A stretch of DNA of 46,987 bases from a virus. The stretch spans positions 1 to 46,987 of IMG/VR virus record IMGVR_UViG_3300017788_000041. One strand, 5' to 3'. The notes beneath the pieces were generated by a model that made no database searches, was not told where the DNA came from, and saw only the letters and a list, made by a program, of their open reading frames with translations. Each line of letters starts with the position of its first letter. Positions within the stretch are counted from its first letter, which is position 1. Below, piece after piece: positions 185 through 9,930 of the stretch. The translations under genes and the position numbers were made by a program.

Positions 185-1030
185 TTATTTTATTGATATA
201 ACCTTTCTTCCTGATTCTTTTTCTATCTGGGCTATGGCATCAGCTTCAGAATATGTATCAAGCATTGCTTCACCAGTGCTTCCGTCAATTGATGTTATTC
301 TTCCAAATCCGCCTCCTTTAATTTTCACAAAATCTCCAATTTTAGCGATAGGCCCTCCAGAAATTCCTGAATTCCCGGATTTTTTCTTAGAAGAAGAACC
401 AGTAAATTCTGGGGGAGTTACTCCTTCATAATTCCAACCTTCCTCAGGGGGAAGCTGAACGTTATTTTCAATTATGTGATCATATATTTTTTCTGCTGAC
501 CACCCCTTATATTCGGGTTTTCCATATGGATTATCTTTGGTAGCAGGTCTGGTATTTAAACAGCCAGGAGGCATTTTACCTAAGCCATTCAAAAACTGTT
601 TAGCCTTTCTTACCTCAGGGCTTTGAGGATCGCCAGAAGGAATGCTAAAACTTTCTGGATCTATTAATTGATTTAAAGCATAATCAGTAGCAGCGTTCCA
701 CGCTGTAGGATTTGCTTGCCTTCTAATGAAATGGAAGAGAGCACAATGCATGATTTCGTGGCAGATTACCCACCTAATTTCTTCGTCGCTTTGTTTTAAT
801 ACAAAATTAGGATCATAGTATATTTTCATACCATCAGTAGCCATAGTTTTGTATTGAAGATTAAGATCCTCAATAAACTCAAGTGTCAAAGAAAACTTTC
901 CAAAAAACTCATTAGAAGTTGCTATGAGTCTGATTTTGCAATCCACTATTTTATCATGAGCAGCTTTGCTTTTATCTGAATTTTCAAAAAGAGGTACTTT
1001 ACTGTTTTGAAGATTTGAGAGATTTCCCAT
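185..1030 (-). CDS. Putative zinc metallopeptidase, DUF2201/VWA-like N-terminal domain type
   Basis: 281 residues. A zinc-peptidase signature HEIMHCALFH lies at residues 91-100 (HExxH plus a third His five residues later), preceded by a segment where the peptidase helix is expected. It is followed by WNAATDYALN at 111-120, matching the WN-A-ADYAIN pattern of the putative metallopeptidase domain of DUF2201 (PF13203). The C-terminal 55 residues form a separate small region rich in Gly and beta-prone segments (GDFVKIKGGGFGRI), possibly an SH3/KOW-like barrel. There is no signal peptide, so it should act in the cytoplasm or virion. It is the second-last gene of the minus-strand run and is preceded by a 63-base gap holding an ATATATAA motif. 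The family is often found with AAA+ MoxR ATPases; none is visible here. Substrate unknown. Confidence 0.75.
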   Translation of the reverse strand: MGNLSNLQNSKVPLFENSDKSKAAHDKIVDCKIRLIATSNEFFGKFSLTLEFIEDLNLQYKTMATDGMKIYYDPNFVLKQSDEEIRWVICHEIMHCALFHFIRRQANPTAWNAATDYALNQLIDPESFSIPSGDPQSPEVRKAKQFLNGLGKMPPGCLNTRPATKDNPYGKPEYKGWSAEKIYDHIIENNVQLPPEEGWNYEGVTPPEFTGSSSKKKSGNSGISGGPIAKIGDFVKIKGGGFGRITSIDGSTGEAMLDTYSEADAIAQIEKESGRKVISIK

Positions 1031-1093: not shown

Positions 1094-3073
1094 TTATCTG
1101 GACGATTCGTAGCATCGATGTAATTCCTCCCAGAGAGAAGAGAGAGCTTTCGGAACGTGCTTTTTAAATTGCATGTAATCTTTATCTTCTAAGGTCTTCA
1201 TCACTTCCCTTGAAATCACCCATTCTGGCGAGGTTTGAATTTGAAAATCTTGGGGTAATTTCTTTCTCTTTTTCAAGGTACGGCTTTGTACCAAATAATT
1301 GTCTAGCTTTTTAGACCCCACAGTCAAGCTTTTGGGATTGCATTTATTTTTGATCTTTTCAATGGAAGTAGAAAGAAGATTGTCAGGAACATAATTTACT
1401 GAATGAATTAGATCAGACATTTCACCAGAAATTATCTTCATCATTTTATCCATTATTTCCCTGTTAATAAAGCTTTTTGAATTATTAACTACCATCAAAG
1501 CAACTGGATTTCCATTTACCTGATTTGCTTTCTTGATCATTTTAAGATGGCCGTTATTAAATGGCTGGAATTTACCAATAATTATATTTACATCCTGAGC
1601 ATCAGGATCAATAGCAGGATCCGAAATAGGATCAGTTTGTCCTAAAGCAGCTTGCATCTTAAAAGCAATTTCTGGATCTATTTCTTTTACCACAATCTCT
1701 TCGGAATCTTCTTTAGGCTCCTCTTCAATATCTTCGGGTTCTTCCTGTGGCTCCTCTATCGGCTTTTCTATGATTTCATCCTCCGGATCTTCAATCACAT
1801 CTTCCTCATCATCCTCTTGCTCTTCATCAGGAACGAAAGATCTTTTAACTTTCCTAAACTCATCAAATGTTGGGATTAAGGATTCAACTACTGCAGGATT
1901 TCTGTTAAGATAGTCTGAGATTTCTCTGACTAATAAATTAAATTGCTCTATAACTCCAGTGGTAAAGAATCCGCCAGATTTCTTTTTAATCTTTCTAAAG
2001 GCTGATAAGATTAGTTTGAAAAGGGATGCATAGCTTTCGTCCTGAGAAACCAATTCTTTAGTTTGATCGTTATTGATTAAATCCAAATTAGACTCAAACC
2101 CGTCTTGCTTTAAAAATTCAGGTTCTTGAAAATCTAGCCCTAAATATTTTTCCCCATTATCTTCTATGAATGAATTAAAAACTGACGAGATGAAAGAAAT
2201 GTATCGGTCTTGTGGATCGTCCCCAGTAAATTCAAAGCTCTCTATTCCTTTATCTAAAATATAGTTCATTACTTCTAGAAGAGTTATTCCGTAGATGTCG
2301 CTTGGGAAATAGCTGGCTTTTTTAACGTTGTTCTGTCTGGTGATATCTTCGAAAACCGGATCTATAATTTTTGCAGAAAAAGATTCTCCGGTTCCACTAA
2401 TTGGTCCAAATCTGAAAACTACTCCTTCGATGGGCTGATCTAAATCGTCATTAAGTAATGTCTTATCTAAATCAGGATTTAAAGTTTTTACTAGATACTT
2501 AGCAAAACTTTGGGTTCCGTGAGAGGATTTTAAACTATCAAATGGGGAGTTAACAAAATCATTAATGGAAGCTTTTTGCTGGTCCGATAATTTTCCCTGA
2601 AAAATAATTGGAGATCTTTCAATATCTAATAGGTCCGCCCAATAATCTAATTCTTCCTTTTCCACAATAGTTCTTTCAACATCTCCATATTGATTTTTAA
2701 CAATGATGTGAGTTAGGACCAAACCGTTTTTAGGAACCCTATTATACGACAATAAAACCGGACCTTCATTTATAAAAAATTCGGTACCGAATCTCCAACC
2801 CGGAGGGATTTCATTTTTTGTGAGATCCGGTAATCCTTGAACATATGTGATGGGTCCATCATAATAGTTCATCAGAACTCTATCAATTTTAGAAATGGGA
2901 TTAACTTGATCTCTTTTATAAAAGAACATAGTTCCGTCTCCTATGCTTTTCTCGAAAGAGAAAGACATACCATTTAATTTTTCAGAAACGGTAACTTCAT
3001 CTCCAAATAAATTGTCAATGAATTCTGCTCCTTGCTTCTTATAAACTTCACTTAGTTGTTTAATCCCTGCCAT
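1094..3073 (-). CDS. Fusion of an ATP-dependent RNA/DNA-ligase-like adenylyltransferase domain with an NMN-adenylyltransferase-like domain
   Basis: 659 residues in three parts. The N-terminal part looks like a covalent nucleotidyltransferase of the polynucleotide ligase superfamily: motif I EKLNG with the candidate adenylated Lys32, motif III-like FGTEFF at 95-100, motif IV EGVVFRF at 216-222, and motif V-like KIIDP at 235-239. Residues 415-465 form an extremely acidic Glu/Asp/Pro linker. The C-terminal part (about 495-659) starts with GKFQPFNNGH at 500-509, the HxGH-type signature of NMNAT/cytidylyltransferase nucleotidyltransferases. A late VISREVMK segment sits where NadM-type enzymes carry their ISxTxxR motif. 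The ligase half may be an RNA ligase; the second half may make NAD or a related dinucleotide. It starts three bases after the 142-residue gene. Motif assignments are by eye; substrates are not known. Confidence 0.65.
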   Translation of the reverse strand: MAGIKQLSEVYKKQGAEFIDNLFGDEVTVSEKLNGMSFSFEKSIGDGTMFFYKRDQVNPISKIDRVLMNYYDGPITYVQGLPDLTKNEIPPGWRFGTEFFINEGPVLLSYNRVPKNGLVLTHIIVKNQYGDVERTIVEKEELDYWADLLDIERSPIIFQGKLSDQQKASINDFVNSPFDSLKSSHGTQSFAKYLVKTLNPDLDKTLLNDDLDQPIEGVVFRFGPISGTGESFSAKIIDPVFEDITRQNNVKKASYFPSDIYGITLLEVMNYILDKGIESFEFTGDDPQDRYISFISSVFNSFIEDNGEKYLGLDFQEPEFLKQDGFESNLDLINNDQTKELVSQDESYASLFKLILSAFRKIKKKSGGFFTTGVIEQFNLLVREISDYLNRNPAVVESLIPTFDEFRKVKRSFVPDEEQEDDEEDVIEDPEDEIIEKPIEEPQEEPEDIEEEPKEDSEEIVVKEIDPEIAFKMQAALGQTDPISDPAIDPDAQDVNIIIGKFQPFNNGHLKMIKKANQVNGNPVALMVVNNSKSFINREIMDKMMKIISGEMSDLIHSVNYVPDNLLSTSIEKIKNKCNPKSLTVGSKKLDNYLVQSRTLKKRKKLPQDFQIQTSPEWVISREVMKTLEDKDYMQFKKHVPKALSSLWEELHRCYESSR

Positions 3074-3076
3074 ATA

Positions 3077-3505
3077 TTAATTTAATACGATAACATCCTT
3101 TCTTCCCATAGAGGTAAAAACTAAAAATGGACCAATTGTTATTGGATTTTTTAATTTAACTTCCATATTTAACATGAACATTTCCAAAGATTTAATTAGT
3201 TGTTCCACCAAAATGCTAGATCTATAGTTTAATTTTTTTCTTTTTACTTTTAACAGTCTTTTATAGTAGACATCTATTGGAGGTTGTTTCTTTGCTTCAC
3301 AGAAAATAGAGAATAGTGAATCTTCTATCTCAGCAACCTTTTCTTCTTCTACCAATAAATCCCAGTCACCCTCTTCGTTTTTTTCGATTCTGCCATCTTT
3401 ACCCATTATTGTTGAGAAGGAAACCTCTCCTTCACCCCTTCTGATACCCGCTACACCGTCTCCTATATAATGCTCAATTATGGGATAGAGTATGTCTACA
3501 ATCAT
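3077..3505 (-). CDS. Unidentified 142-residue protein
   Basis: No family recognised. The protein is soluble-looking, with an acidic middle (EEGDWDLLVEEEKVAEIEDS) followed by a strongly basic stretch (YYKRLLKVKRKKLNYRSS) and a hydrophobic beta-prone end (ITIGPFLVFTSMGRKDVIVLN). Its ATG lies four bases beyond the stop of the upstream 88-residue gene, and its stop is three bases from the start of the ligase/NMNAT fusion. The three are therefore most likely translated from one message. The tight spacing suggests, but does not show, a role related to the fusion enzyme. Confidence 0.65.
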   Translation of the reverse strand: MIVDILYPIIEHYIGDGVAGIRRGEGEVSFSTIMGKDGRIEKNEEGDWDLLVEEEKVAEIEDSLFSIFCEAKKQPPIDVYYKRLLKVKRKKLNYRSSILVEQLIKSLEMFMLNMEVKLKNPITIGPFLVFTSMGRKDVIVLN

Positions 3506-4428: not shown

Positions 4429-5955
4429 TTAGAGAGTAACCTCATAAACCTTATATTCGAACTTTTCTCTCTTGTAAATCTCTATACGCTCATTAGAATG
4501 CTTTATTAAATAGTTTGCGGAGGTTTTCCAGGTGAAATCATCAACGAAGTCAATAACATTAACCTTCTCCTTTCCCTCATAAAGTCTCATCCCCCTCCCT
4601 AAACTTTGCTTAATTAGCACCTCTGACTTATAAGACTCTGTCAAGAATATATTATGAATGTTTTTAACAGAGACCCCGGTACTAAGAGTTCCAAAACTGG
4701 CCACAAGGACCTTATTGGTGCCTTCTTCCATTTTGCCCTTATAGAAATCTCTCCTTTCTGGTTCGGTGTCACCATCAACATAAAAGATCTCCTTATCTGC
4801 CTGAATTTCCCGCAGCATGTCGTACATTCTCTTTCCGTACCCCTCTCCAACAGATTGGAACAGAACCAGAGAATTTTTGCTGATTTTGGAAATGAAATCC
4901 ACGATATAATTGATTCTTTTGTCTGAGGAGATAACCAACTTTTTCTCCACGTTGAAAATTTCACTGCCTTCTAAATCCTGCTTGTTGGTTCTAAGATCAT
5001 AAAGTTTTTCTTTTAGATCGTCCGAAAGCCAATTCATTTTAACTATTTTGATCGAAACTGGAGTGGCGTAGTTATTATCAAACAGGAACTTAGGACTTAT
5101 CTCCATCACCAGAGGACCTAGATATTGTTGAATAGTTAAATGTTCTGCAGTGTTTCTGTTAGTTAAAGTTCCGGAAAGACCGAACCTATATTTAGATCCT
5201 CTACACTTAGAAACTACCTCTTTAATAGATTTAGAGTGGCTTTGGTGGGATTCATCGACGAACACGGCTTCAACTCCATCGAAAAAAGATTCATCCTGTT
5301 TGACTAGAGACTGATATGTTCCTATCATTAATCCAGAAGAAATTTTATTTTTATTTCCTCCATGGATTAGTTGTATTTCGCAGTTGTCAAGTTTCTTTAA
5401 TCCATAGCTCTCAAAATCCTCAGATCCTTGAAGAATCAGAGTGGTGTTTGGAACAATCATTAAAAATTTGTTTACCTGCTTGATTCTCTTAAGGTAAGCA
5501 AGCACAATAAATGCGATTAATGTTTTTCCGGAGGATGTTGCAATCTCTAAGCAGGAATATCTGAATTTTATAATTCTCCATGCAGCCTCAATCTGATAAT
5601 CTCGCGGTTTTAATTCTTTATCTGCAAAAAATTCATTGGTCCATTCTGTAAACTGTTCCAGCGTAAGATCATTTTCTATGATTTGATCTAGACCCACAAT
5701 ATCAACATCTATTTTGTACTTCTCTCCAATATCAAAAACTTCACTCCATAAACCAATAGGAACCTTCCAAAGTGGTCCCCTTTTATCCACAAAACAAATA
5801 GCTCCATCCCAGTGTTTCTTTTTTACTAGCGGATGGAAAAAATAATTGTGTATTTTACGTGTTAAGGAGATCTCCAGTTGCTTTCTTTCGACCTCTTCAT
5901 CATAGTCTTGTAAAAGCAGCCATTGTAAATCATCAGAAACTATAAATTTTAGCAT
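4429..5955 (-). CDS. uvsW: UvsW-like SF2 helicase (branched DNA/R-loop remodelling)
   Basis: 508 residues against about 503 for T4 UvsW. Superfamily 2 motifs run in order: Walker A ATSSGKT at 139-145, the DEAD-type box DESH at 234-237, motif III SGT at 261-263, STGVSVKNIH in the second RecA fold, and motif VI QSLGRGMR at 450-457. The extreme C-terminus (SANYLIKHSNERIEIY...EVTL) follows the T4 protein closely. The N-terminal 110 residues correspond to the UvsW DNA-binding domain, including a WDG turn at 49-51. In T4, UvsW unwinds R-loops, drives branch migration and helps switch from origin- to recombination-dependent replication. It lies directly downstream of the UvsY-like gene (11-base gap), so the recombination proteins form one block. 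Confidence 0.93.
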   Translation of the reverse strand: MLKFIVSDDLQWLLLQDYDEEVERKQLEISLTRKIHNYFFHPLVKKKHWDGAICFVDKRGPLWKVPIGLWSEVFDIGEKYKIDVDIVGLDQIIENDLTLEQFTEWTNEFFADKELKPRDYQIEAAWRIIKFRYSCLEIATSSGKTLIAFIVLAYLKRIKQVNKFLMIVPNTTLILQGSEDFESYGLKKLDNCEIQLIHGGNKNKISSGLMIGTYQSLVKQDESFFDGVEAVFVDESHQSHSKSIKEVVSKCRGSKYRFGLSGTLTNRNTAEHLTIQQYLGPLVMEISPKFLFDNNYATPVSIKIVKMNWLSDDLKEKLYDLRTNKQDLEGSEIFNVEKKLVISSDKRINYIVDFISKISKNSLVLFQSVGEGYGKRMYDMLREIQADKEIFYVDGDTEPERRDFYKGKMEEGTNKVLVASFGTLSTGVSVKNIHNIFLTESYKSEVLIKQSLGRGMRLYEGKEKVNVIDFVDDFTWKTSANYLIKHSNERIEIYKREKFEYKVYEVTL

Positions 5956-6628: not shown

Positions 6629-7659
6629 TTCTCGCTAGAAAAATATTTTTCAAATCTTTTTATTTTGATCTTGTTCGATCTAACATAATCGACCACATCA
6701 TTTAAATCCCATTTGTCTCTGTCCGGTAAGTTGTTTTCGTCTAAAAATTTCTTCCACAGGAAAACACTCTCTCCCCTACATATCTTCTTTCTTAACTCTT
6801 CCTTTCCTGGATCGTCCCCATCATAGAACCATCTCTTATTAGTTATGTCAAAGGGAAATGGATTATTGATCGAGCATAGTGCAACAGCATTTGGAAAAAG
6901 AAATGAATCAAAAGGTCCCTCAAAAATGGTAACCGGTTGATCCAGATCCACAGTGGAAAATCCAAAAACTAAGGAGATAGGGTCCAGCTCTTCTGCTTTT
7001 TGAAGAAGGTCTATATCTTTGCTCCCCAAAAGGTTTTTATGAATACCGCTAAGCTTATAAGTATAATACTTATTTACAGCATTCTTGTTCATATTTCTCA
7101 GCTGCAATCCTAATATGAACTTTCCATCAGAAGTTAAATTAAGTATGTGTATAGAACGTTTTACGGGGTCATACAAGTACTTTTCGTCAACAGTCTGATT
7201 TCTCTTCGCTAAATATTCTTGCACCGGCCTAGGGACTTCTATGAGCTTTAATTTAGCTTTATAATCCTCCCTTGAAACCAGCACATCCCTATAGTTTTCC
7301 AAGATGAATACATCGACACTGGCAGAAACTCTTCTAGATGTTTTCTTCAGATTTATGGTATTCTTAGCCTCCTCAATTTGCTCGTGGGTTAATTCCCGAG
7401 CAAGCTCATGATCAAAAAGAAAACCAATTAAATCTCTGAATTTACCACATCCACCATTATAACACTTAAAAGAGAGGCTATCTACGTATAGATTGCCCCT
7501 CTTTTTTCTTGGGTCATTTGAGTCTCCGCAGTAGGGACAGGAAAAGTTTAATCTATTATGTGAAGTATAGATTTTTTGCTTCTGGGGATTTCCTGGAAAG
7601 GCAACCTCCAAAGCTTTGGATACAAGATCCTTGACCTTTTCTAAACCTAATTTTTGCAT
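6607..7659 (-). CDS. 61: DNA primase, T4 gp61 / DnaG type
   Basis: 350 residues against 342 for T4 gp61. An N-terminal zinc ribbon has Cys41, Cys44, Cys66 and Cys71 (CPYCGDS ... CYNGGC). The catalytic TOPRIM region has the conserved glutamate in FEGPFDS (Glu247) and the acidic loop YDGDDPG at 279-285. The order and spacing match gp61, including the FEGPFDS segment that parallels LEGPIDS in T4. The enzyme makes short RNA primers for lagging-strand synthesis, normally together with the gp41 helicase, which is not in this window. It follows the gp32 gene by 18 bases and overlaps the next small gene by 22 bases. Confidence 0.92.
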   Translation of the reverse strand: MQKLGLEKVKDLVSKALEVAFPGNPQKQKIYTSHNRLNFSCPYCGDSNDPRKKRGNLYVDSLSFKCYNGGCGKFRDLIGFLFDHELARELTHEQIEEAKNTINLKKTSRRVSASVDVFILENYRDVLVSREDYKAKLKLIEVPRPVQEYLAKRNQTVDEKYLYDPVKRSIHILNLTSDGKFILGLQLRNMNKNAVNKYYTYKLSGIHKNLLGSKDIDLLQKAEELDPISLVFGFSTVDLDQPVTIFEGPFDSFLFPNAVALCSINNPFPFDITNKRWFYDGDDPGKEELRKKICRGESVFLWKKFLDENNLPDRDKWDLNDVVDYVRSNKIKIKRFEKYFSSEKWDMILI

Positions 7660-7677
7660 AAGATCTCATAAATGTTA

Positions 7678-8658
7678 TTAGAGATCGTTATACAAATCAT
7701 CCAAGCTACCAGAAGAGGTAGAAGATTTTTTAGCAGATGCTGCGGGTTGCACAGTTTCAGCTTCTTCTAGATTTTCTGGATCAGAGAAGAAATCTGCTTC
7801 AGCAGACCTTTTTGTCTCCTTTTTCGTGGGATTTGGATTAGAGCTTGATGCTGATGGTTTTGAATCTGGTGATCCTGAAAAGATCTCAGATAACATTCTT
7901 CCATCAGGAATGGTGTTGCGAATAATAGAGTTGATTTTTTCTCTATCTTCGTCGGACCATTCTTTGTAATCATATTTTTCAACTAGATCTTGAGGACCTG
8001 CTTTTAAATATTCAACAATTCTTTTTTGGTCTGCTTCGGTTTTTTCAACTGCAGATCCACTAATTAAGATCGGTCCCTTTTCTCCTACGAATTGACAAAG
8101 ATCGTAGTTATTCCAATCTCCTACCTTTCTAACATGAATACCGAAGTTTTTGCCTTCGAATAGATCAAAAGGATTACAAGGAGATCCGTATTCTGGCTTG
8201 ATTTGTTGTTCAATTAAATCATTTACCTTCTTACCAAATTTGAACACCATAACTTTACCTTCTAATTCAGGATGATTAGGATCTTTCACAACTTGAATGA
8301 GTGAATAATAATCTTCCTTACGAGAAAATGATTTAGCAAGCTCCTGGTCTTTAGCAGAGGGAGAGTTCTTTAACTTCCAGAAGATATCTTTTAGAATTGA
8401 TTTCTTACCCACTGTTGATGGACAATCAGCAACAAAGTTACTGTTATCTAAGGGGTCTTTTAACCACACATAATATTTGTGGATTTTAGATTTTTTGGGA
8501 TTTGCGACGTTCGGGAGAAATCTAATAAGAGATTTGTAAACTCCGTCTTTTCCGAGTTCCGGATAAGGCTTGTAAATGTTAGCGTCGCCGCCTTGACTTT
8601 GGGGTTCTGGCTTCAGAAAGTCCTCATTGTCCAAACTAAAAATGTCAAAATTTTCCAT
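7678..8658 (-). CDS. 32: Single-stranded DNA-binding protein, T4 gp32 type
   Basis: 326 residues against 301 for T4 gp32. Matching segments include IRFLPN (45-50), QVVKDPNHPELEGKV (about 122-136, T4 VVKDPAAPENEGKV), FGKKV, and the acidic tail ending SLDDLYNDL, which matches T4 TDLDDLLNDL and in T4 recruits replication proteins. A Ser/Pro/Lys-rich linker precedes the tail. Two T4 features are missing. The zinc site (H-C-C-C) has only one Cys in the right region (Cys79), and the N-terminus is acidic (MENFDIFSLDNEDF) instead of the basic LAST motif used for cooperative binding. The gene follows a 59-base leader with direct repeats and precedes the primase gene. Confidence 0.92.
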   Translation of the reverse strand: MENFDIFSLDNEDFLKPEPQSQGGDANIYKPYPELGKDGVYKSLIRFLPNVANPKKSKIHKYYVWLKDPLDNSNFVADCPSTVGKKSILKDIFWKLKNSPSAKDQELAKSFSRKEDYYSLIQVVKDPNHPELEGKVMVFKFGKKVNDLIEQQIKPEYGSPCNPFDLFEGKNFGIHVRKVGDWNNYDLCQFVGEKGPILISGSAVEKTEADQKRIVEYLKAGPQDLVEKYDYKEWSDEDREKINSIIRNTIPDGRMLSEIFSGSPDSKPSASSSNPNPTKKETKRSAEADFFSDPENLEEAETVQPAASAKKSSTSSGSLDDLYNDL

Positions 8659-8717
8659 GTTTTTTCTAGATTTTTTTAAATTAACTAAAATTGATTCCTA
8701 AGTTATACCTAAGTGTC
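8659..8717 (-). promoter_or_regulatory. gp32 leader with 7-bp direct repeat and unstructured A-rich stretch
   Basis: This 59-base gap is one of the longest in the DNA module. The plus strand has CCTAAGT at 8697-8703 and again at 8708-8714, an 11-base period (about one DNA turn). Closer to the start codon the minus strand is A-rich and free of obvious hairpins. T4 gp32 binds an unstructured leader of its own mRNA to repress translation; this leader could serve that role, and the repeats could be an operator. No experiment or alignment supports it yet. Confidence 0.35.
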
Positions 8718-9386
8718 TCAAAAAGTTTCCCCTAAAATTTGTTTTCCATATAAACTAATCCAAGTGGCATCTATCAAATCAGAACAGGGGGTCTCCACTT
8801 CCTTGTTCTTCTTAATCCAGATATCCTTGTTTTGTTTCAATGGAGAAACAAGAGGACTTAGGAGATTATCCTCACTGTATTTATCTATGAGAGCTAAATA
8901 AAGTTCATCCTTCTTTGAATTACCCTTGAGGGCAAATTTTTTAATTGCGGTAGGGGAATAAACATATAGATTTTTATATCCTACTAGCTCAGCTATTCTT
9001 TCTCTTACTAAAGCAGTGCACATGGAAATATCAATCAAGGAATTTCCAGAGCTTCCGAAGGAAATACCCTCCATGAAAACCACTGTTTCATCAGTTATGA
9101 ATGGAACAAGGGTCATCATAAAATTATCGGCTATGATGGAAAAGTTCTCCAGCTTAGTTCTTTCTATTTCCCAATATTCACCTTCAACCTTTCTTTTTTC
9201 TTTCACAGTGAGGGTAAAATTTGGATCTTCCCCAAATATTTTAAATGGTGATCCTTCTTTTACAAGCATATTATCAACCTTTTTAGTTGTTCTGTGGCAA
9301 GATCCCCAATTTGCCCCATGTTCACTAAGTGAGCACCAAGCGGGGGAGTTTAAAGAAAAATCCACCCCAATAATGTTTTTAACCAA
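8718..9386 (-). CDS. RuvC-like RNase H-fold nuclease (putative Holliday junction resolvase)
   Basis: 222 residues. The first strand NIIGVDFSLNSPAW carries Asp9. The second acidic residue is Glu106 in VVFMEGISFG, and the C-terminal pair is Asp203/Asp206 in CSDLIDATWIS. PTAIKKFALKGNSKKDE at 145-161 fits the RuvC pattern of a basic segment before the last helix. RuvC enzymes cut four-way junctions; in T4 this task belongs to the unrelated gp49, so this may be its replacement. The start is TTG at 9386: in-frame stops lie just upstream, and no later start would keep the first strand. It overlaps the end of the preceding tube-fold gene by eight bases, joining the tail block and the DNA block. Confidence 0.8.
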   Translation of the reverse strand: MVKNIIGVDFSLNSPAWCSLSEHGANWGSCHRTTKKVDNMLVKEGSPFKIFGEDPNFTLTVKEKRKVEGEYWEIERTKLENFSIIADNFMMTLVPFITDETVVFMEGISFGSSGNSLIDISMCTALVRERIAELVGYKNLYVYSPTAIKKFALKGNSKKDELYLALIDKYSEDNLLSPLVSPLKQNKDIWIKKNKEVETPCSDLIDATWISLYGKQILGETF

Positions 9387-9930
9387 TTTCTAATTTTATA
9401 TCGACGTAGTTACATCTAAAGCCCACACTAAATGTGGAGAACTGAGGGGTCGTGCTAGAATAGTTCAGTTGTACCTCGGATAACGATGTATATATCGGCT
9501 GCTGGAATTTCACAGTGGACATAATAATGCCTTCGTGATCCAATAAATGAAGTGTTAGATCTGGAAGATATTCATTCTCATTCTGAAAATCTAAAAAATT
9601 AACTATGCTTTCATACATAATCCAATAGTTAATGAATCCCTCTCCTAGTTTGAAAGTAACATTAAAATCCCTTCTCACTAAGTTCTGTATGGTAGTTGCA
9701 CTCTTATAATTCTGTCTGTATCCTCCAGGTCTTGTTTGCTCCACATTATCTATAGTTTGAAACGTCGGAAAGGATACCTGCTGAATAGTTGAATTCATAA
9801 AATCCTTAAGAGTGTCATAAGGAATGGGCATTCTCTTAACATAAGCCAAATACTTTTCTTCCAACTGTTGAGAGTAGAATCCCTTTGGAAAGTTAAATAT
9901 AAAAGCATTCTGCCTTGAATTTAATAACAT
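9379..9930 (-). CDS. Tail-tube-fold structural protein (gp19/gp54-like)
   Basis: 183 residues. The C-terminal third (YTSLSEVQLNYSSTTPQF then FSTFSVGFRCNYVDIKLE) lines up with the end of T4 tail-tube protein gp19 (VGELQLDWDSNN, IQTFEVTLALDYWE). The central DFNVTFKLGEGFINYWIMYE matches the gp19 strand and loop pattern followed by the helix with W/Y residues. The extra N-terminal part (PYDTLKDFMNSTIQQVSFPTF) is where tube proteins have their first strands. It could be the tube itself or the tube-initiator/baseplate protein gp54, which shares the fold. Sitting between a large structural gene and the nuclease gene slightly favours a baseplate-associated form. No sheath gene is present in this window to decide. 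Confidence 0.55.
   Translation of the reverse strand: MLLNSRQNAFIFNFPKGFYSQQLEEKYLAYVKRMPIPYDTLKDFMNSTIQQVSFPTFQTIDNVEQTRPGGYRQNYKSATTIQNLVRRDFNVTFKLGEGFINYWIMYESIVNFLDFQNENEYLPDLTLHLLDHEGIIMSTVKFQQPIYTSLSEVQLNYSSTTPQFSTFSVGFRCNYVDIKLEIG

What the first reader, a model, noticed from the sequence alone, without database searches (positions are those of the whole stretch)
1094..3073. Ligase-like and NMNAT-like nucleotidyltransferases fused through an acidic linker
One protein joins a KxNG/EGVV-type covalent nucleotidyltransferase (polynucleotide ligase superfamily) and a GxFxPxxxGH-type NMN adenylyltransferase-like domain. Such a pairing suggests linked NAD and nucleic acid chemistry: NAD supply for capping, RNA repair that releases NMN or AMP, or making a ligase substrate. 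Phages rebuild NAD during anti-defence (NARP pathways use a NAMAT-type enzyme), but fusion with a ligase domain is not something I know as described. The motif I spelling KLNG differs from the common KxDG.
Basis: partly seen in the sequence, partly recalled or inferred. Interest (0 to 1): 0.72.

Follow-up and report, generated by a model that had tools for sequence, protein, structure and literature searches.

The report
Phage RNA-ligase-like and NMNAT-like fusion protein
A T4-like phage carries one protein that joins an RNA-ligase-type domain to a domain shaped like an NAD-making enzyme; the pairing recurs in many aquatic phages and appears undescribed, but key catalytic residues of one or both halves have been lost repeatedly, so it is not simply a two-in-one enzyme.

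Summary
In detail: one 659-aa gene, on the MINUS strand at 1094-3073. Predicted folds and profiles agree. Residues 1-248 are an Rnl2-type RNA-ligase nucleotidyltransferase domain (T4 Rnl2, Z 11.8), 249-415 are helical, 416-488 are a disordered acidic linker, and 489-659 are an NMNAT/PPAT-type HIGH domain (archaeal NMNAT, Z 15.4). The fusion is a conserved, phage-specific family. Of 41 non-redundant members found by N-half patterns, 22 are fused to the HIGH domain and 8 encode it next door. I found no published description. The HIGH half has NNGH instead of (H/T)xGH and Met625 where the SxTxxR arginine should be. The ligase half keeps Lys32, Arg54, Glu98, Glu216 and Lys235 but lacks the second motif V lysine. 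Across the family Lys32 was lost at least six times, and one sister clade lost both active sites, yet both domains are under strong purifying selection. Best reading: an Rnl2-like protein, possibly still adenylylating here, with a non-catalytic NMNAT-like domain, part of a wider phage ligase + HIGH-transferase module. Many neighbours in relatives carry T4-type capsid-targeting N-termini; this protein does not.

The parts
1094..3073 (-). whole gene, 659 aa, ligase-like/NMNAT-like fusion (L1-CTase family)
   Evidence: ORF; full-length relatives at 68-91% identity in IMG/VR and 35% in LR756500
2330..3073 (-). residues 1-248: Rnl2-type nucleotidyltransferase domain; motifs I K32 (2983-2969), Ia R54 (2920-2906), III E98 (2788-2774), IV E216 (2428-2414), V K235 (2374-2357)
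   Evidence: Z 11.8, rmsd 3.5, 193-195 residues aligned to T4 Rnl2 1s68/2hvq; alignment to T4 Rnl2; coordinates
1829..2329 (-). residues 249-415: mostly helical domain following the nucleotidyltransferase domain, with the conserved FKxxLxxFRKxxKK stretch
   Evidence: AF2 secondary structure; Foldseek alignment columns run over full-length Rnl2 but with large rmsd, so homology of this part is not shown
1610..1828 (-). residues 416-488: acidic, mostly disordered linker
   Evidence: 33 of 73 residues D/E; pLDDT under 50 at 422-465 and 478-482
1097..1609 (-). residues 489-659: NMNAT/PPAT-type HIGH nucleotidyltransferase domain with altered signature (N506-N-G-H509; M625)
   Evidence: Z 15.4, rmsd 2.1, 147 residues aligned to M. 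jannaschii NMNAT 1f9a; motif alignment
3077..3505 (-). 142-aa protein of unknown function, directly upstream and 3 nt from the gene
   Evidence: homologue at position -1 in 19 of 20 loci that have it; no Pfam or PHROG match
4429..5955 (-). UvsW-type helicase, conserved upstream marker
   Evidence: phrog_16, E=9.9e-70; present in 41 of 71 family loci at about -3/-4
185..1030 (-). DUF2201_N putative metallopeptidase, downstream; MoxR-type AAA ATPase follows in a near relative
   Evidence: PF13203 E=6.8e-20; AAA_5 in L004:9833-11374

Best explanation
The protein is a member of a phage-specific family in which an Rnl2-type RNA-ligase-like domain is fused to an NMNAT-like HIGH domain. In this phage the ligase half most likely still binds ATP and can form the covalent lysyl-AMP on Lys32, and acts on RNA (or nicked nucleic acid) ends, as in phage RNA repair. 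The C-terminal half is most likely no longer an adenylyltransferase but a nucleotide-binding or docking module joined by a flexible acidic linker. The family is one form of a broader module in T4-like aquatic phages in which a ligase-fold protein and a HIGH transferase travel together, so the two folds probably act on the same substrate or complex. Shown: domain folds (by prediction), fusion and adjacency, motif states, purifying selection. Inferred: ATP binding, adenylylation, RNA as substrate, loss of transferase activity, cooperation.
For: Folds: rows 1-26 of the structural re-alignment for the N domain are all RNA ligases, with T4 Rnl2 at Z 11.8; DNA ligases start at Z 9.4 and below. Motifs I, Ia, III, IV and one motif V Lys align with T4 Rnl2, and the five non-redundant members of the window's clade all keep K32, G35, E98, E216 and the AK of motif V. 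C domain: nearest fold is archaeal NMNAT, but the (H/T)xGH and SxTxxR signatures are altered in the window and its close relatives, while L007 and the marine clade keep TLGH...SA[ST]xVR. Selection: dN/dS 0.023 and 0.029. Pairing: of 41 non-redundant members found by N-half patterns, 22 fused and 8 adjacent to the HIGH domain. A second, reversed fusion (HIGH then a different ligase-like protein, L2) occurs in Microcystis phage Mel-JY01 and LR756508. L2, with invariant EKxDG, ARN, E, EGxxF and KxTG positions in 30 sequences, lies next to L1 in many loci.
Against: Motif V has one lysine; the position matching T4 Rnl2 Lys227 is Ile237, and the commonest residues there across the family are V, I, E and L, with no Lys listed. 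Lys32 is replaced by N, D, Q or M in 26 of 73 members, at least six changes on the tree, including the nearest sister branch (L021, Met), so ligase activity is not what the whole family is kept for. RNA-repair partners such as Pnkp were not sought. No model coordinates were available, so the pocket geometry was not measured.
Confidence: 0.45

Rival explanations
1. Pseudo-enzyme scaffold: both halves have lost catalysis and the protein serves as a nucleic-acid- or nucleotide-binding adaptor or virion-associated protein; the intact-looking ligase motifs of the window clade are ancestral remains.
For: Lys32 changed at least six times; sister clade L100-L118 has Asn at Lys32, NNGH and no SxTxxR, yet keeps the architecture; the L008-L011/L079-L083 group (huge phages) has Asp/Asn at Lys32 and no HIGH domain found; second motif V Lys not seen in the family.
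Against: In the window clade all tested ligase positions are kept in all five members, which drift without function would not explain easily; Arg54 occurs mainly in members with Lys32 (13 of 16 Arg54 carriers).
Confidence: 0.3
2. Bifunctional NAD-linked enzyme: the HIGH half makes NAD (or another adenylylated cofactor) and the ligase half uses it or repairs RNA in the same anti-defence response.
For: C fold nearest to NMNAT; recurrent fusion; marine-clade relatives keep an intact TLGH...SATxVR signature and Lys32; phage NAD rescue is established for other enzymes (PMC9503650; PMC12774641).
Against: Signature residues lost in the window clade; NAPRTase in only 4 of 18 records, none in the two records searched from the window's clade; PPAT (Z 14.8) is nearly tied with NMNAT (Z 15.4), so the substrate is unknown.
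Confidence: 0.12
3. Head-packaged cargo that is injected with the DNA, like T4 internal proteins.
For: 105 of 647 neighbour genes of the family carry a T4-capsid-targeting-like N-terminus (6.2 expected), including L2 ligases and stand-alone HIGH-domain proteins; cyanophage cytidylyltransferases are often detected in virion proteomes (PMC10665884).
Against: The window protein itself, like most fused members, has no such tag, and no tagged gene lies beside it in the window; tagged genes lie downstream in close relatives.
Confidence: 0.13

Closest known systems
T4 RNA ligase 2 (Rnl2, gp24.1) and the Rnl2-type RNA ligases (TbREL1, Naegleria Rnl)
   Same: Fold of residues 1-248 (Z 11.8 to 1s68/2hvq, 10.8 to TbREL1 1xdn, 11.8 to Naegleria Rnl); motifs I, Ia, III, IV and first motif V Lys align
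   Different: KLNG for KIHG; Ile at the second motif V Lys; 16% identity; much longer helical part; fused HIGH domain; nucleophile lost in many relatives
NMN adenylyltransferase, archaeal NadM type, and phage NadM/NadR (PF01467)
   Same: Fold of residues 489-659 (Z 15.4 to 1f9a); phrog_3462 and phrog_395 matches
   Different: NNGH and no SxTxxR Arg in the window clade; no Nudix or kinase partner domain; fused to a ligase fold instead; PPAT nearly as close (Z 14.8)
Cyanophage cytidylyltransferase (phrog_395, T4-like GC 190) with upstream DUF6267 (PF19782, T4-like GC 71)
   Same: HIGH domain matches the C-half profile (E 4e-10 to 5e-9); it follows a DUF6267 gene whose invariant KxDG, GTK, EGxV and KxVxR positions read like ligase motifs
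   Different: Two genes, not fused; signature intact; DUF6267 relation to ligases is motif reading only, profile comparison not significant; some DUF6267 genes have no annotated HIGH gene next to them
Microcystis phage Mel-JY01 WWT39297 'cytidylyltransferase like protein'
   Same: HIGH domain and ligase-like protein in one chain
   Different: Order reversed, and the ligase-like part is the L2 family, not L1
Phage NAD+ reconstitution enzymes (NARP1 Adps/Namat; NadV + NadM)
   Same: Nucleotide chemistry theme only
   Different: Namat is Nampt-like, not NMNAT-like (PMC12774641)

Membership tests
Rnl2-type RNA ligase | Rnl2-like nucleotidyltransferase fold | tested here: met
   AF2 model mbcad125f9228, Z 11.8 to T4 Rnl2; rows 1-26 all RNA ligases
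Rnl2-type RNA ligase | Motif I nucleophile lysine in KxxG | tested here: met
   K32 in EKLNG aligned to K35 of T4 Rnl2; but lost in 26 of 73 family members
Rnl2-type RNA ligase | Motif Ia Arg, motif III Glu, motif IV Glu | tested here: met
   R54, E98, E216; exact register of motif III by profile alignment only
Rnl2-type RNA ligase | Motif V K-x-K (both lysines; essentiality in Rnl2 from own knowledge) | tested here: not met
   K235 aligned to K225, I237 at the place of K227; so it is called Rnl2-like, not filed as an Rnl2 member
Rnl2-type RNA ligase | ATP-dependent adenylylation and sealing | not testable with these tools
   needs protein
NMNAT / HIGH adenylyltransferase (PF01467) | HIGH nucleotidyltransferase fold | tested here: met
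   Z 15.4 to 1f9a
NMNAT / HIGH adenylyltransferase (PF01467) | (H/T)xGH signature | tested here: not met
   N506-N-G-H509
NMNAT / HIGH adenylyltransferase (PF01467) | SxTxxR signature near the C-terminus | tested here: not met
   ISREVM with Met625 at the Arg position; Ser or other in close relatives
NMNAT / HIGH adenylyltransferase (PF01467) | Score above Pfam gathering threshold | tested here: not met
   20.8 against 21.0 bits for the window protein; several relatives pass
T4-type packaged internal protein | N-terminal capsid targeting sequence with L/I-x-E cleavage | tested here: not met
   pattern absent from window protein; T4 rule from PMC9026906
NARP1 Namat | Nampt-like phosphoribosyltransferase fold | tested here: inconclusive
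   no such match among the listed rows, which are filled by NMNAT/PPAT and ligase folds

The most novel reading that the evidence does not exclude
Ligase-fold proteins and NMNAT-like HIGH transferases form a conserved two-fold module of T4-like aquatic phages that has been joined at least twice in opposite order (L1-HIGH and HIGH-L2) and occurs as neighbouring genes in cyanophages (DUF6267 + cytidylyltransferase). The module handles nucleic-acid ends early in infection, with a division of labour in which individual active sites can be lost to a partner.
Probability: 0.3. Interest if true: 0.8.

Novelty: new variant of a known kind. Interest (0 to 1): 0.6.

Why it matters
Cyanophage 'cytidylyltransferases' are common in genomes and virion proteomes and are explained, if at all, as NAD supply. 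If their frequent companion is a ligase-fold protein, that explanation is incomplete, and hundreds of cyanophage genomes and many metagenomic T4-like phages carry an untested nucleic-acid-end-processing module. The family also offers a natural series of losses of two active sites within one architecture, so the roles of catalysis and binding can be separated experimentally.

Tried and rejected
Rejected: a NAD-making enzyme as first choice (signature residues lost; NAPRTase rarely present). Rejected: capsid targeting of this protein itself (no tag). Tested and not supported: that Lys32 is kept where the L2 ligase is absent; the cross-table shows Lys and non-Lys members on both sides. A profile search of the N domain against PDB sequences found nothing, and L2 gave only chance-level hits; the fold comparison gave the N-domain link. 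hhalign of DUF6267 with L2 put the KxDG motifs opposite each other but at E=0.023, probability 2%, so that link is a lead only; L1 with L2 gave E=4.7e-5, probability 68%. Prokaryotic genome contigs: 65 pattern matches, none a relative, so no cellular homologue at that sensitivity; the same scan with A6 could not be run. No Nampt-fold match appeared in the listed fold rows. Atu_ph07 gp696 next to a HIGH gene is not ligase-like by these profiles. The homology of residues 249-415 to the Rnl2 C-terminal domain is not shown. Literature searches for the fusion and for DUF6267 returned nothing describing them; the library lacks most subscription papers.

Full report
1. The observation. The gene is real and lies on the minus strand at 1094-3073: 659 aa, starting 3 nt after the stop codon of the upstream 142-aa gene. 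The surroundings are those of a T4-like myophage: UvsW helicase, DNA primase, ssDNA-binding protein, RuvC-like resolvase, tail tube, baseplate wedge and PhoH. The record is a 46,987-base virus contig.

2. What the halves are. Single-sequence Pfam scores are marginal, but family scans are clear: CTP_transf_like in 44 of 64 members (best 3e-11) and RNA_ligase in 11 (best 3.5e-9). AlphaFold2 gave a confident model of the whole protein (pLDDT 85.8; linker disordered) and of residues 1-416 (87.9). For the N domain the first 26 re-aligned rows are RNA ligases: T4 Rnl2 Z 11.8, rmsd 3.5, 193-195 residues; Naegleria Rnl Z 11.8; TbREL1 Z 10.8; DNA ligases come lower, from Z 9.4 (Foldseek E 4e-9 to Rnl2). 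For the C domain the best are archaeal NMNATs (1f9a, Z 15.4, rmsd 2.1, 147 residues), with NadD and PPAT close behind; the substrate cannot be told from the fold.

3. Active sites. Aligned to T4 Rnl2, the window has K32 = K35, R54 = R55, E98 in motif III, E216 = E204 and K235 = K225, but I237 where Rnl2 has K227. Essentiality of both motif V lysines in Rnl2 is from my own knowledge. In the C half, (H/T)xGH is NNGH and the SxTxxR arginine is Met625; relative L007 and the marine clade keep TLGH and SA[ST]xVR. So in this phage the ligase half looks mostly intact and the transferase half does not.

4. The family. Patterns from the first alignment found 200 relatives in IMG/VR, of which 80 were kept. 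At 90% identity I have 73 N domains. Of the 41 found by N-half patterns, 22 are fused to the HIGH domain, 8 have it next door, and 11 lack it or end too early. The full set of 73 (53 fused) is biased, because part was found through the C domain. No relative was found in the collection of 84,980 prokaryotic genomes. Lys32 is K in 46, N in 13, D in 6, Q in 5 and M in 2, at least six changes between K and non-K on a tree built without that column (quick tree, some long branches; that the changes are losses is inferred from K being the catalytic state). One sister clade (L100-L118) has lost Lys32 and both HIGH signatures. Yet both halves are under strong purifying selection in the window clade (dN/dS 0.023 and 0.029, linker 0.076). 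The architecture is therefore kept even where catalysis of the known kind is not possible.

5. The neighbourhood. Across family loci the helicase UvsW is the commonest upstream marker (41 of 71 loci). In 33 loci there is a second ligase-like protein (L2, about 425 aa), most often directly upstream. L2 representatives match no Pfam or PHROG family, but 30 aligned sequences share invariant EKxDG, ARN, motif III Glu, EGxxF and KxTG positions. L2 itself is found fused behind a HIGH domain in Mel-JY01 and LR756508. The window, and the two larger records searched from its clade (219 and 245 kb), gave no L2 match. In cyanophages the phrog_395 cytidylyltransferase often follows DUF6267 (PF19782), whose invariant residues again read like ligase motifs, though profile comparison does not prove it and some DUF6267 genes stand without an annotated HIGH neighbour.

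6. Capsid-targeting tags. Among 647 distinct neighbour genes, 105 begin with [FYILVW]xx[FYW][ILVM]xE within 20 residues, against 6.2 expected by shuffling and 5-27 in later windows. This resembles the T4 capsid targeting sequence cut by gp21 after L/I-x-E (PMC9026906). L2, stand-alone HIGH proteins and a MoxR ATPase carry it; the window protein does not. Cyanophage cytidylyltransferases are reported in virion proteomes (PMC10665884), with the authors' caution that contamination is possible.

7. Mechanism. I favour an Rnl2-like ligase half that may still adenylylate Lys32 and act on RNA ends, carrying a non-catalytic NMNAT-like module (0.45). A fully non-catalytic adaptor is the main rival (0.3). 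NAD-coupled bifunctional catalysis is unlikely for this protein (0.12), though open for relatives with both sites intact. Everything beyond fold, motifs, pairing and selection is inference.

8. Novelty. Both folds are known; the combination, its spread, its reversed counterpart and the repeated loss of active sites were not found described in the papers searched. The deposited viral protein A0A6J5NWC5, the best full-length match among predicted viral structures, is named only for its HIGH domain. I file it as a new variant of a known kind.

Noticed in passing
Neighbour genes of the family, e.g. L004:9833-11374, L081:4208-5749, L162:6526-7800: 105 of 647 distinct genes begin with a T4-capsid-targeting-like tag such as MKHIKLFEQFINE (6.2 expected), suggesting a large set of head-packaged proteins in these phages.
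   Followed up: partly
L004:9833-11374, L001:9875-11500; window 185-1030 (-): A MoxR-type AAA ATPase with such a tag lies downstream of the fusion in relatives of the window, and a DUF2201 metallopeptidase gene follows the fusion in the window: a possible packaged MoxR/DUF2201 pair.
   Followed up: partly
L2 family, e.g. L162:6526-7800, L065:3561-4829, L007:4704-5966: About 425-aa ligase-like proteins with invariant EKxDG...EGxxF...KxTG, without any Pfam or PHROG family.
   Followed up: partly
L173:3845-4765, L177:4664-5761, L184:2489-3067: Pfam DUF6267 (PF19782), unknown function, has invariant KxDG, GTK, EGxV and KxVxR and often precedes the cyanophage cytidylyltransferase; possibly an unrecognised ligase-fold family.
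   Followed up: partly
L069:4043-4978: 312-aa protein with a GSTGK...GDIDIAID stretch like a Pol-beta nucleotidyltransferase; relatives in 9 family loci, directly upstream of the L1 gene in 5; no Pfam or PHROG match.
   Followed up: no
L060:4995-6782 and 7615-9384; L162:3744-5588 and 7805-9685: Two copies of the L1-HIGH fusion in one contig; in L060 the second copy is strongly diverged in the HIGH half.
   Followed up: no
L025:243-3587, L028:5004-8354, L126:3729-7031: Fusions of about 1,100 aa with an extra C-terminal part that begins with an internal tag-like sequence such as LLTFNDFITES, as if a tagged gene had been fused on.
   Followed up: no
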